Position numbers and translations under genes: made by a program
The notes under the pieces: generated by a model
Database searches by the model: none
What the model was told of the DNA's origin: nothing
The model's input: the letters and a program-made list of their open reading frames with translations, nothing else
Source of the DNA: an uncultured bacterium
Lineage (GTDB): Bacteria; Elusimicrobiota; Elusimicrobia; Elusimicrobiales; Elusimicrobiaceae
Reading direction: 5' to 3'
DNA: 64,000 bases
Assembly: GCA_949298795.1 (NCBI GenBank)
Contig: CASFXV010000002.1
Coordinates: 62,001-126,000, forward strand
Shown: one piece after another, positions 12,052-44,571 of the stretch
Position numbering within the stretch: position 1 is the stretch's first letter
How the letters are laid out: every line of letters begins with the position of its first letter

Positions 12052-13506
12052 TTATTTGGGTTTATTCCGGTGATACTTTTGGAATAATTCCTGAAATTTT
12101 TCCCGGTATGGGCCGGGTACCCTCTTATAATGGCAGGATGTGCTATACAGCGAAGAAGAAGACGGAGGGAACTTGCCATGAACAGAAACATACTCCAGCA
12201 ACCTCTCATAAAGGCCTTTCTCAGGCAAAAACTGCTGCTGCTGTTTTAAACGCTGCAAAACAAGACGGGCCCCCAACAAATCCGGGTTATCCTGCAAGGT
12301 TTCCACCTTGGAAAACAAAACTGTTCCTTCTTGCGGCCATTGGCGGTTTTTCAACACATAAGTTTTTAATTCTTCCAATACACCCAATACCTGCGCGTGG
12401 GGTTCCCCGCCAGCCATCACGCCCTTTGCCAAGTTGGAAGCATAGTGTTCATACAACGCCAAACCCGCCCGGTACTTCTCCGCCGGGGGAACATACGCTC
12501 TAAACGCTTGTTCGGCTTCGCGCCGGGCAACGGCGGAAACATAGGGGCTGTACAATACTTTTATTACTTTCCAGGAAATCAAAGCCTCTCCTTCGGCAAA
12601 GGCCTTAAAAGATTGCCCGAAGGCCGATTTGGTGTTGTGTTGTTTCTTCTTTATATCCAATTGCACCAAGCGGGAAGAAAGCGTTTTTTCCATTTGGTCA
12701 ATACGCTGGTTAATTTCTTGTTGCTGCCAAGGGAACAGCCTGTCATAATGTTTTTTATAAAATTCCAGGGATTGGCCCTTCCCCCCATATAGAGACCCCA
12801 TTACCCTGCGGATAGCTTCCCGGCGGGCGGTATTCCCCTGTTCCGGAAGAACTAATTTTGCCGGGTGAAGGTCGTCCCATTCATACATTTGGGAAAGTGT
12901 CTTCAAGTTTTTATCATGCTGCACCGTTGAAATTCTTTGATGGAGCAAAGCCTTGTCACTGCGGGCCAAAATGTTACCGGCGTTGGAAAAATCCAGCTTG
13001 GAAAGGGACCATAAAATGTTGCGGTACTCGTTTGGCGCAAGCAATTTTTCCTGCAGGGCGCCGTTTAATAAAGCCACCGCTTTTTTAAGTTCCGCGCCGT
13101 CATATAAATTAAACTGTAAAAATTGTCGGCTTAAATCCTTGCGGGAAGAAACGGATTTAGCAGAAGCACCTTCCGGTAAAGAAAATTCTTCCCCCGTCAG
13201 CCAGCTGTGCACCAAAGCCTGCGCCTGCGCGTACTGACCGGAGCGGAAAAGAGCCTCTAAACCGTCACGCTGGGGGCCGGCGGGAACGCGTTTGAACAAT
13301 AAAAAAGAAACGCGCTGCAAATCCCTGCAGGAACGAAAACTCCTTAATTTAGTAAGGCGCTTTTCCAATTCCAACAGGTCTTTTTCGGAGGCTTTTACGC
13401 TGCCGGCGGCAAGTTTTTTGCCTACAGCCTCAATCACCGGTTTCTGAGCAAAGGCAGCCGGGCACAACAAAAATACACACAATATAAAACAGGCTATTTT
13501 CTTCAT
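12052..13506 (-). CDS. Secreted protein of unknown function, tandem paralogue A
   Basis: About 484 residues with a clear signal peptide (MKKIACFILCVFLLCPAAFA). I do not recognise a family. It is mostly alpha-helical and lysine/glutamine-rich. It carries two copies of a short repeat: an N-terminal 'FKRVPAGPQRDGLEALF' and a C-terminal 'YKRVPGPYREKFQELF', with a 'NRQWPQEGTVLF' stretch before the second. The neighbour at 13664 is a full-length paralogue, so this is a tandem duplication. An in-frame TTG at 13515 is an alternative start and sits closer to a GGGG that may act as Shine-Dalgarno. The promoter region contains the shared leader element at 13526-13595. Confidence 0.75.
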   Translation of the reverse strand: MKKIACFILCVFLLCPAAFAQKPVIEAVGKKLAAGSVKASEKDLLELEKRLTKLRSFRSCRDLQRVSFLLFKRVPAGPQRDGLEALFRSGQYAQAQALVHSWLTGEEFSLPEGASAKSVSSRKDLSRQFLQFNLYDGAELKKAVALLNGALQEKLLAPNEYRNILWSLSKLDFSNAGNILARSDKALLHQRISTVQHDKNLKTLSQMYEWDDLHPAKLVLPEQGNTARREAIRRVMGSLYGGKGQSLEFYKKHYDRLFPWQQQEINQRIDQMEKTLSSRLVQLDIKKKQHNTKSAFGQSFKAFAEGEALISWKVIKVLYSPYVSAVARREAEQAFRAYVPPAEKYRAGLALYEHYASNLAKGVMAGGEPHAQVLGVLEELKTYVLKNRQWPQEGTVLFSKVETLQDNPDLLGARLVLQRLKQQQQFLPEKGLYERLLEYVSVHGKFPPSSSSLYSTSCHYKRVPGPYREKFQELFQKYHRNKPK

Positions 13507-13525: not shown

Positions 13526-13595
13526 CCCCGACATCCCCAGCCAGGGCCTTAAGACCTAACTTCCGTGGTTTTTGGACCTATGTTCACTAGGCCCA
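13526..13595 (-). promoter_or_regulatory. Shared leader element, copy A
   Basis: Reading on the minus strand: TGGGCCTA, then TAGGTCC and TAGGTCT half-sites, AAGGCCCTGG, and finally GGGG about 11-20 nt before the start codon. The same ordered blocks occur upstream of the genes at 13664 and 43799. GGTC-TTAA-GGCC can form a short hairpin, and GGGCCT can pair with AGGCCC. Confidence 0.5.
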
Positions 13596-13663: not shown

Positions 13664-15109
13664 CTATTTCATATAATGATATTTTTCAAACAATTTAAGG
13701 AAACGCTCCCGATACGGCCCCGGAATTTTTTTATAACGCATAAGCGCATGATACAAAGAAGAGGTAGACGGAGGCAATTTGCCATGCTGGGCAATATAAT
13801 TCTGAAGAGAAACATATATTTCTTTTTCCGGCAACTTCTGTTGCTTCTGTTTCAAACGCTTTATCATCAGTTTGGCCCCGTCCAAATCAGGGGCAGTTTC
13901 CAGTTCCTGTAAACGGACAAACAAAGCAGACCCCTCCTGCGGCCATTGGCGGTTTTTAGCCAAATACTCATCCAATTCCTGTAAAGGTCCCAACACCTGT
14001 TGCATCTCCGGAGACACAACCAGATTTTTATCTAAATTTTGGGAATATTCCTCATACAAGGCCACCCCCGCTATTACTTCTTCCCCGTAGGAAAGACCTC
14101 CGGACAAAGCCTTTTCAGCCGCACGGCGGGCGGGGCCGGATACATAAGGGCTGTAAAGCACCTGCATTACCGTCCAGGAAGAATTGACCACCCCGGTTAC
14201 AAAACGGGCAAATACAAAGGAAAAATGCCGTTTATCCATATGTCCTTTGTTTGATGCGTTTGCTTGCAATACGCGCTGGGCAATGGTTTGTTCCATTTGG
14301 TCTATTTGCGCGTCCAATTCTTGCTGGCGCCAGGGCGGAAGCTGCTCATAATAGGCTTGATGAACAGACAAAGGCTTTTTCTTGCCCCCTGCTAACGGGC
14401 CTAATACTTGGCGGATGGCCTCCCGACGGGAAATGTTGTCCAAAGGCGGTATTTCCATCGGACGCGGATTTAGATCTTCCCATTCATACATTTTGGCAAG
14501 CTGAAGCTGCGCTTTTTCGCATTGGGGTTGGGGAATCGTATGATGCAAAATGGCTTTGCCGTTACGGGTTAAAATATATTCCGCATTGCGAAAATCCAAG
14601 CGGGAAAGAGACCATATAATATTGCGGTACTCATTTAAATTTAGTAATTTTGCCTGCCAGCCCGCCTGTAAAAACAGAACCGCTTTTTTTAACTCCGGGC
14701 CTTTAGAAAGGTCAAACTCCAGAAAGCGGGCGGCAAATTCCGCGCGGCGGCTTTTAGGTTTAACGGGAGCGGGCTGTTTAAATAAATCCTCCCCCGTCAG
14801 CCACATATGCACCTTGGCCTGCGCCTGCAGATATTTACCGCAACGGAACAAATCCTCCAGCGCATCACGCTGGGGGCCGGGCTCCACCCTGTATTTAAGC
14901 AACAAATCAACTCTTGCCAAACTGGTGGGGTTTGGTTCTTTTCTTAGTATAATAAAACGTTTTTCCAATTCTTTTAAGTCTCTTTCCGTCGCTTTTACGC
15001 CAAAAGACTCCGCCTTCTTGCAGAAAGTTTTTATAACATTCTTTTGGGCAAAAGAATAAGAAGAAATAAACAAAACCAATAAAAAACCATAAAATATTTT
15101 TTTCATCAT
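13664..15109 (-). CDS. Secreted protein of unknown function, tandem paralogue B
   Basis: About 481 residues, collinear with the product of 12052-13506 over its whole length. Shared blocks include 'GPQRDALEDLFRCGKY', 'NEYRNIIWSLSRLDF', 'MYEWEDLNPRP', 'VLYSPYVSGPARR' and the C-terminal 'YKKIPGPYRERF'. A signal peptide ends near FISSYSFAQ. No catalytic motif is visible, and a helical repeat scaffold is likely. Start uncertain: tandem ATGs at 15109/15106, an in-frame TTG at 15124 eight nt from GGGGG, and GTG at 15130. Separate terminators and leader elements show that A and B are transcribed independently despite being adjacent. Confidence 0.75.
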   Translation of the reverse strand: MMKKIFYGFLLVLFISSYSFAQKNVIKTFCKKAESFGVKATERDLKELEKRFIILRKEPNPTSLARVDLLLKYRVEPGPQRDALEDLFRCGKYLQAQAKVHMWLTGEDLFKQPAPVKPKSRRAEFAARFLEFDLSKGPELKKAVLFLQAGWQAKLLNLNEYRNIIWSLSRLDFRNAEYILTRNGKAILHHTIPQPQCEKAQLQLAKMYEWEDLNPRPMEIPPLDNISRREAIRQVLGPLAGGKKKPLSVHQAYYEQLPPWRQQELDAQIDQMEQTIAQRVLQANASNKGHMDKRHFSFVFARFVTGVVNSSWTVMQVLYSPYVSGPARRAAEKALSGGLSYGEEVIAGVALYEEYSQNLDKNLVVSPEMQQVLGPLQELDEYLAKNRQWPQEGSALFVRLQELETAPDLDGAKLMIKRLKQKQQKLPEKEIYVSLQNYIAQHGKLPPSTSSLYHALMRYKKIPGPYRERFLKLFEKYHYMK

Positions 15110-15132
15110 ACTAATAAAATACAATAACACGG

Positions 15133-15182
15133 CCCCCGTAGACAGGGCCTAAAGTCCTATATTTAACCGCTTTTTAGGCCCA
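15133..15182 (-). promoter_or_regulatory. Shared leader element, copy B
   Basis: Minus strand: TGGGCCTAAA, then TAGGACT, TTTAGGCCCTG and GGGGG. Here GGGCCTAAA and TTTAGGCCC are perfect 9-nt complementary arms around a 19-nt loop. The element lies immediately after the terminator at 15196-15219, so the promoter must overlap it or lie inside it. Confidence 0.5.
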
Positions 15183-43798: not shown

Positions 43799-44410
43799 TT
43801 AATTAAAAGGGTCTTCTTCACACTCGTTTAGGCAAATATCCAATATTTTTTCTTTTACCTCAAAACCCAAACGGATAATGCGGTCTTCAGTCGTCCAATC
43901 CCTAAACCACACAAAAACGGTATTGCCCTTGCGTTCCACTTTATCGGGAAACTGGCTTTTGGCATCAAAATCAAACCGCAGCAAGGCACGCAAACGCAGG
44001 AATGTATCCTCGCTCATGCTAAACAAATCCATCGGGTTGCCCGCGGCTACGACATACGGGGCAAACAGTTTATTGTTGTTGGTTTCCAGCTGCAACCATT
44101 CCCGGCGGCCCTTTATCAAGGCGTATATAGAAGTTAATTGGCTTTCCGCTCTGGCGCCGTATTCTTGTTTTACCAGCTGTACGAATTTACTTTCCGGAGT
44201 CATAAAATCCTGATAGCAAAGTTTTATGTATATTTCCTCTTTTTTATGGCGGGCGTCATACCAGTTGGACAAAAGGCCGGCAGGATAAACTTCCTGTTCC
44301 ACTTGCCACAAATAATAAACCCATTGCGGATAGGTTTGCGCAAAAGTAGGAAGAGCAAACGAAAAGACAAACATTACAAGTAAAATGATTTTCTTCATAT
44401 TTATTAGCAT
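43799..44410 (-). CDS. Secreted protein of unknown function with the shared leader element
   Basis: 203 residues, signal peptide ending near PTFAQ. No family recognised. The mature protein is Tyr/Trp-rich at its start ('YPQWVYYLWQVEQEVYP') and ends with an acidic 'CLNECEEDPFN' holding two of its three cysteines. It is not a homologue of the tandem paralogues at 12052-15109, yet its leader carries the same ordered motif. GGGGG is 6 nt before ATG 44410; a second ATG at 44398 restores a typical MKK signal peptide start. Confidence 0.65.
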   Translation of the reverse strand: MLINMKKIILLVMFVFSFALPTFAQTYPQWVYYLWQVEQEVYPAGLLSNWYDARHKKEEIYIKLCYQDFMTPESKFVQLVKQEYGARAESQLTSIYALIKGRREWLQLETNNNKLFAPYVVAAGNPMDLFSMSEDTFLRLRALLRFDFDAKSQFPDKVERKGNTVFVWFRDWTTEDRIIRLGFEVKEKILDICLNECEEDPFN

Positions 44411-44416
44411 ACAAAA

Positions 44417-44466
44417 CCCCCACAGCGTATACCAGGGTCATTAGACCCAAACGTTATATAGGCCCA
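44417..44466 (-). promoter_or_regulatory. Shared leader element, copy C
   Basis: Minus strand: TGGGCCTA, then TGGGTCT-AAT-GACCCTGG, then GGGGG just before the start codon. Here GGGTC / GACCC form a perfect 5-bp stem with a 4-nt loop. Confidence 0.5.
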
Positions 44467-44571
44467 TTTCTTAAAATTTATATCATTTCTCAATTTATGG
44501 TATTTAATAATCTCCTAAATGCATGATTGGTTATATTTAAAAATTTCTTTTTTCAACGAATCTTTTACACA

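What the first reader, a model, noticed from the sequence alone, without database searches (positions are those of the whole stretch)
13526..13595. A conserved leader element is shared by three secreted-protein genes (copy A)
Copies A (13526-13595), B (15133-15182) and C (44417-44466) share ordered blocks: TGGGCCTA, a TAGGYCY-type half-site run ending in G(G/A)CCCTG, and GGGG(G) near the start codon. C belongs to an unrelated gene 30 kb away, so the element is not just a by-product of the A/B duplication. It may be an RNA hairpin controlling translation or an operator with repeated TAGGYCY half-sites.
Basis: seen in the sequence. Interest (0 to 1): 0.7.

Follow-up and report, generated by a model that had tools for sequence, protein, structure and literature searches.

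The report
Shared promoter switch for secreted proteins
In uncultured gut bacteria of the order Elusimicrobiales, several dozen genes for exported proteins carry the same DNA switch just upstream of where transcription starts, probably bound by a DosR-like two-component regulator, so the cell can probably control much of its secreted repertoire together.

Summary
The shared element is real, but it is a DNA operator inside a promoter, not an RNA leader. Copies A, B and C are the only significant window hits of a sequence profile. The core is a 16-bp palindrome, TRGGTCTWWWGRCCCT. A -10 box lies at fixed spacing; the inferred start places the palindrome centre at -42.5. A second, weaker copy often lies 22-25 bp upstream. 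In A, B and C the ATG falls at the inferred start, so those mRNAs should be leaderless. The two arms do not covary. The host is an uncultured gut Elusimicrobiales bacterium with about 50-65 such sites. Of 143 sites read in it and in related genomes, 126 precede a signal-peptide gene. The operator occurs in two families of the order. Best candidate regulator: a NarL/DosR/VraR-type response regulator (RR2, outside the window). It carries DosR's base-contacting Lys-Lys-Asn triad and was found in all 26 operator-bearing genomes checked. The operator resembles the DosR and LiaR/CesR boxes. CRP/FNR, TetR and a second NarL-type regulator were tested and fit worse. Binding and expression are untested. 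This is a new regulon of a known kind; most of its secreted targets match no known family.

The parts
13543..13558 (-). Copy A, proximal operator TAGGTCTTAAGGCCCT
   Evidence: exact consensus match; independent profile hit E 2e-5
13565..13580 (-). Copy A, distal operator TAGGTCCAAAAACCAC, centre 22 bp upstream
   Evidence: palindrome score above zero at the enriched spacing; aligned sequence conserved in orthologue L281
13588..13595 (-).
   Evidence: sequence; near-match TAGGGCCTT in L281
13514..13519 (-). Copy A, -10 box TATCTT
   Evidence: fixed position in 125 aligned promoters; coordinates checked
12052..13506 (-). Gene A, exported protein of 484 aa, no Pfam match; ATG at the inferred start of transcription
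15144..15159 (-). Copy B, proximal operator TAGGACTTTAGGCCCT
   Evidence: exact consensus match; independent profile hit E 5e-5
15167..15182 (-). Copy B, weak distal operator TGGGCCTAAAAAGCGG, centre 23 bp upstream (one good half-site)
   Evidence: sequence and spacing
15116..15121 (-). Copy B, -10 box TATTTT
13664..15109 (-). Gene B, exported paralogue of A (50% identity); ATG at the inferred start of transcription
44434..44449 (-). Copy C, proximal operator TGGGTCTAATGACCCT
   Evidence: exact consensus match; profile hit E 1e-9, but C was in the training set
44459..44474 (-). Copy C, weak distal operator TTAAGAAATGGGCCTA, centre 25 bp upstream (one good half-site)
   Evidence: sequence and spacing
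44406..44411 (-). Copy C, -10 box TATGCT
43799..44398 (-). Gene C, exported protein of 199 aa unrelated to A and B; ATG at the inferred start of transcription

Best explanation
The element is the operator of a class II-type activated promoter that defines a large regulon of exported proteins in Elusimicrobiales. A protein dimer binds the 16-bp palindrome TRGGTCTWWWGRCCCT centred at about -42.5, next to a poor -35 (TTG/TGG), and probably helps sigma-70 RNA polymerase start at a TANAAT -10 box. A second dimer on a weaker copy 22-25 bp upstream probably binds cooperatively. In about a quarter of targets, including A, B and C, the start codon is the first transcribed base (leaderless mRNA). The most likely activator is RR2 (G000:C3:42007-42633, minus strand, outside the window), a NarL/DosR/VraR-type response regulator encoded beside a receiver-histidine kinase. 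Shown by computation: palindrome, fixed -10 spacing, tandem copies, conservation, class of target gene, lack of arm covariation, and co-occurrence with RR2. Inferred: the start site, activation rather than repression, binding by RR2, cooperativity, and the signal.
For: 48 copies against 6 reversed controls in this genome; 126 of 143 sites before signal-peptide genes; -10 box at fixed distance and palindrome centre at -42.5 in 125 promoters; second site 22-25 bp upstream in 46% against 0.5% in shuffles; no arm covariation, all p > 0.1; ATG distance bimodal, 33-35 nt with 3% Shine-Dalgarno-like against 42 nt or more with 80%; conserved before orthologues. For RR2: present with the K-T-[IV]-K-N helix motif in all 26 operator-bearing genomes checked; the only NarL-type HTH in G042, which has 11 sites; first Lys lost in G124, which has no sites; same base-contact triad as DosR (PMC4082495); operator matches the DosR core at 10.6 of 16 positions against 5.1 in shuffles.
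Against: No binding or expression data. The RR2 correlation follows phylogeny in part. G061 keeps an RR2 relative (54% identity, triad intact) without sites, and G183 has RR2 with two weak sites only. No good operator at the RR2 locus held, so no sign of autoregulation. Most transcription factor families were not surveyed. A repressor using the same site is not excluded.
Confidence: 0.7

Rival explanations
1. The same DNA operator and regulon, but bound by a different regulator: the second NarL-type regulator RR1 (G000:C1:102536-103180, minus strand), or a family not surveyed.
For: RR1 is in every f1 genome searched, directly after its own histidine kinase gene, and its family can bind such palindromes. 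Most helix-turn-helix families were not searched.
Against: RR1 is kept at 70% identity in G124, which has no sites; no RR1 orthologue was detected in operator-bearing G042 or G056; its recognition helix lacks the DosR triad (N, H, V). CRP/FNR is undetected in three operator-rich genomes and the TetR proteins are not orthologous.
Confidence: 0.3
2. The palindrome is a repressor site: a dimer over the -35 blocks polymerase, and the regulon is switched on when it leaves.
For: The right half-site touches the -35 region, and repressors commonly act there.
Against: The centre stays at -42.5, the -35 is poor and the -10 spacing is fixed, as expected for an activator; DosR-type regulators mostly activate (established knowledge).
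Confidence: 0.15
3. A transcribed RNA hairpin that controls translation.
For: The two copies can be drawn as a long imperfect hairpin in some promoters.
Against: No covariation at any of 16 pairs in 79 elements, with C-A mismatches as common as T-A pairs; the element lies upstream of the inferred start, which the bimodal ATG distances fix independently; no Rfam match.
Confidence: 0.02
4. A dispersed repeat or mobile element with no regulatory role.
For: Dozens of copies per genome.
Against: Copies share only the operator and -10 with unrelated flanks (125 of 126 sequences non-redundant), face one class of gene in one orientation, and are conserved before orthologues. Reversed-pattern controls are near zero.
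Confidence: 0.01

Closest known systems
DosR (DevR) regulon and Dos box of Mycobacterium tuberculosis (TTSGGGACTWWAGTCCCSAA; PMC2275270, PMC4082495)
   Same: NarL-type response regulator; palindrome with the same length and centre (GG.CT-WW-.G.CCC); often several sites per promoter; recognition helix with the same Lys, Lys, Asn at the base-contact positions; regulon of about 50 genes.
   Different: The half-site has T where Dos has A and A or G where Dos has T; targets are exported proteins, not hypoxia genes; the adjacent kinase is a receiver-histidine kinase, not a haem sensor of the DosS kind as far as read; overall similarity to DosR is modest (E 7e-31) and below that to VraR.
LiaR / VraR / CesR of Firmicutes (16-bp inverted repeat TCAGHCTnnAGDCTGA; PMC4447274)
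   Same: RR2's closest relatives of solved structure are VraR chains (E 1e-38); 16-bp inverted repeat with the same GHCT-nn-.GDC core.
   Different: The outer half-site bases differ (TRGG against TCAG); VraR has Thr where RR2 has Asn in the triad; S. mutans LiaR also needs an A4 flank; the LiaR regulon answers cell-envelope stress.
DegS-DegU of Bacillus (from own knowledge)
   Same: A NarL-type two-component system that controls secreted enzymes as a group.
   Different: Different binding sequence; orthology not tested; most targets here are proteins of unknown function.

Membership tests
Class II-type activator-dependent sigma-70 promoter | Activator site centred near -41.5 or -42.5, overlapping or next to the -35 | tested here: met
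   centre -42.5 relative to the inferred start in 125 promoters; the start itself is inferred
Class II-type activator-dependent sigma-70 promoter | Sigma-70-type -10 box at fixed spacing with a poor -35 | tested here: met
   TANAAT at positions 38-43 and TKKY at the -35
Class II-type activator-dependent sigma-70 promoter | Transcription rises when the site is bound | not testable with these tools
   needs reporter or expression data
NarL/LuxR-type response regulator (candidate RR2) | Receiver domain followed by a GerE helix-turn-helix | tested here: met
   Pfam GerE match and full-length alignment to VraR and NarL chains
DosR/LiaR-type operator | 16-bp palindrome with GG.C and G.CC half-sites around a 4-bp A/T-rich centre | tested here: met
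DosR orthologue | Base-contact residues Lys179, Lys182, Asn183 | tested here: met
   K, K, N in RR2 of all 26 operator-bearing genomes checked
DosR orthologue | DosR as the closest known relative | tested here: not met
   VraR scores higher, so RR2 works like DosR but is not filed as DosR
LiaR/VraR orthologue | VraR as the closest relative of solved structure | tested here: met
   E 1e-38
LiaR/VraR orthologue | Operator TCAGHCTnnAGDCTGA with the outer half-site bases kept | tested here: not met
   positions 1, 2, 13 and 14 differ in nearly all sites
Structured cis-regulatory RNA | Base pairs kept by compensatory change | tested here: not met
Known Rfam family | Match at the gathering score | tested here: not met

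The most novel reading that the evidence does not exclude
A DosR-like response regulator is an order-wide or wider switch for the secretome of Elusimicrobia: target genes turn over quickly and most encode orphan exported proteins (with some ankyrin-repeat, protease, nuclease and receiver-domain proteins), while operator and regulator stay fixed, and a quarter of the targets are read from leaderless mRNAs.
Probability: 0.4. Interest if true: 0.62.

Novelty: new member of a known kind. Interest (0 to 1): 0.5.

Why it matters
I found no paper describing a regulon or regulatory motif for this bacterial group in the library searched. The operator marks a co-regulated set of exported proteins in gut Elusimicrobiales, most of unknown function and so otherwise hard to prioritise. 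It names a testable regulator, gives a sequence tag for finding the proteins these bacteria deploy together, and offers a natural case of a fixed operator and regulator with changing targets.

Tried and rejected
RNA hairpin: no covariation, upstream of the inferred start, no Rfam match. CRP/FNR: undetected in three operator-rich genomes. TetR: looked promising by presence and absence, but the proteins are not orthologous and those in f1 mostly sit beside TolC-type operons. XRE/HTH_3: scarce and inconsistent in operator-rich genomes. RR1: see rivals. Autoregulation: no good site at the RR1 operons or the RR2 locus held. Literature searches for a known Elusimicrobia motif or regulon found none; a ComA search returned nothing.

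Full report
WHAT IS THERE. The finding points at minus-strand sequence upstream of three genes for exported proteins. Genes A and B are paralogues (50% identity). Gene C, 30 kb away, is unrelated apart from its signal peptide. The core TRGGWCTWWWGRCCCTG matches exactly at 13558-13542, 15159-15143 and 44449-44433 and nowhere else in the window without mismatches. A sequence-only profile built from 34 relatives, including C but not A or B, gives exactly these three significant window hits.

HOW OFTEN AND WHERE. In the 1.56-Mb genome that holds the window, the core occurs 48 times with up to two mismatches, against 6 for the reversed pattern. Of 143 distinct sites read in this genome and relatives, 126 are followed within 220 nt by an ORF with a signal peptide by a simple hydropathy rule. 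In 644 kb of this genome taken as stretches (574 ORFs), 19 strong sites lie before ORFs. By eye 17 of these ORFs have a clear signal peptide, one has a signal peptide out of frame and one is unclear. The deliberately permissive automatic classes give Fisher p = 3e-6. The taxon is an uncultured gut lineage of Elusimicrobiales: relatives of gene A lie in MAGs so labelled. Upstream of gene A's relatives the element is conserved at 73% and 51% protein identity (L281, L282) and eroded in a third (L280).

ANATOMY. Aligning 125 non-redundant promoters shows four things. First, a 16-bp palindrome TRGGTCTWWWGRCCCT with nearly invariant GG, C, G and CCC positions. Second, a poor -35 (T, G/T, G/T, T/C) directly after it. 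Third, a TANAAT -10 box 17 bp further on at fixed spacing. Fourth, an A-rich position 7 nt after it, taken as the start site (+1). The palindrome centre is then at -42.5. The two central bases are TT or AA far more often than TA, an A-tract-like preference typical of DNA sites. A second, weaker palindrome has its centre 22-25 bp upstream (46% of promoters score above 5, shuffles 0.5%), with a minor third cluster at 45-49 bp. The GGGG blocks are not conserved.

LEADERLESS CLASS. The distance from operator to ATG is bimodal: 34 promoters at 33-35 nt, none at 28-32, two at 36-41, and 61 at 42 nt or more within the sequence examined. Shine-Dalgarno-like sequence is present in 3% of the first class and 80% of the last. 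The simplest reading is that the first class, which includes A, B and C, starts transcription at the start codon. This independently fixes the start site and places the element outside the transcript.

RNA OR DNA. For the hairpin reading, pairing between arms was tested at all 16 positions over 79 elements with a distal site. No pair exceeds permutation (all p > 0.1), and at the variable inner pair C-A mismatches are as common as T-A pairs (25 and 26). No Rfam family matches the window. The RNA reading is rejected.

EVOLUTIONARY DEPTH. A strict promoter pattern (half-sites, -35 and -10) is found in nearly all congeners and in all three genomes of a sister genus, at lower counts in a third genus, with almost no control hits over 341 genomes of the phylum. 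With the profile, counts are 65, 91 and 55 in three f1 genomes, 16-43 in genus g15, 9-14 in g13 and g14, 0 in the single g16 genome, 5-17 in the sister family f2, and 0-1 in f3, f5, f6, f7 and f21; one f11 and two f15 genomes have 8-18. The contexts of the f11 and f15 sites in that search were not inspected. In f2 the operator precedes a conserved secreted endonuclease I gene in several genomes, so the link to export predates the family split.

REGULON CONTENT. Of 95 target proteins from relatives, few match Pfam: ankyrin repeats, trypsin-like peptidase, receiver domain, SpoIID, endonuclease I, a glutaminase. In this genome there are also SpoIID, trypsin-like, receiver-domain and weakly ChaN-like proteins. 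The clearest non-exported target is a family 2 glycosyltransferase gene seen in four genomes about 150 nt downstream.

WHICH REGULATOR. CRP/FNR proteins are undetected in operator-rich G000, G011 and G030. TetR proteins looked promising by presence and absence, but they are not orthologous. Each f1 genome has two full-length NarL-type regulators in common. RR1 follows its own histidine kinase; RR2 stands between a receiver-histidine kinase and a TadE-like gene. RR2 with the helix motif K-T-[IV]-K-N was found in all 26 genomes with five or more sites that were checked. G042, with 11 sites, has a single NarL-type HTH and it is RR2. G124, with no sites, keeps RR1 at 70% but has a fast-diverged RR2 (62%, against 67-73% in the more distant family f2) with Asn for the first Lys. 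Exceptions: G061 keeps an RR2 relative at 54% with the triad intact but no sites, and G183 has RR2 and two weak sites. RR2's closest relatives of solved structure are VraR and, fourth, DosR/DevR. DosR contacts bases through Lys179, Lys182 and Asn183 (PMC4082495); RR2 has K, K and N there, VraR K, K and T, and RR1 N, H and V. The DosR box TTSGGGACTWWAGTCCCSAA (PMC2275270) and the CesR motif TCAGHCTnnAGDCTGA (PMC4447274) share the 16-bp architecture with this operator, which matches the DosR core at 10.6 of 16 positions against 5.1 in shuffles. These lines of evidence are circumstantial; the presence/absence line is confounded by common descent, and no binding was tested.

HOW IT PROBABLY WORKS. 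A signal received by a sensor kinase, possibly the adjacent receiver-histidine kinase, phosphorylates RR2. RR2 dimers bind the proximal and, where present, the distal operator and recruit sigma-70 polymerase to promoters with a poor -35, switching on the exported-protein set. Activation rather than repression is inferred from the fixed spacing, the poor -35 and the habits of the family.

CONFIDENCE. That the element is a DNA operator in a promoter: about 0.95. That it controls a regulon of mainly exported proteins: about 0.9. That RR2 is the regulator: about 0.65. Activation: about 0.8.

Noticed in passing
L026:225-1442 (-) and L027:296-1414 (-), own genome contig C2 about 36-38 kb: Two neighbouring regulon members end in a response-regulator receiver domain (PF00072, E 7e-12 and 4e-8), and L026 has a clear signal peptide. 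Three more of 95 targets in relatives match the same domain. A receiver domain in an exported protein is unusual; the acceptor Asp seems kept and the conserved Lys lost.
   Followed up: partly
L027, start of the gene (G000:C2, near 38.0 kb): The start region reads ATGAAAAAATAG, a run of six A that puts the signal peptide out of frame with the rest of the gene. Slippage, phase variation or an assembly error.
   Followed up: no
L008:81-1454 (-) and L009:82-1455 (-), own genome contig C27: Tandem exported paralogues, both with the operator, carry an HELGHAFGL-type zinc-protease motif; L008 matches no Pfam family at E 0.01. Possibly an unrecognised secreted metalloprotease family.
   Followed up: no
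L021:1670-2422 (+), L089, L112, L125: A family 2 glycosyltransferase gene without a signal peptide carries the operator in four genomes, with the ATG about 150 nt downstream: a conserved exception to the exported-protein rule.
   Followed up: partly
L177, L286, L287, L292: In genera g12 and g15 the operator precedes a conserved small ORF of about 50 aa (MKxNLKFxLALG...), in two cases (L177, L292) followed by a signal-peptide gene.
   Followed up: partly
L291:1613-2485 (+); also L289, L293, L297, L298, L302: In family f2 the operator precedes a conserved signal-peptide gene with a TTG start; in L291 the protein is an endonuclease I (PF04231, E 7e-39).
   Followed up: partly
G000:C3 about 41-44 kb (L233): The RR2 gene lies between a receiver-histidine kinase gene and a TadE-like gene, an arrangement also seen in several other f1 genomes.
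   Followed up: no
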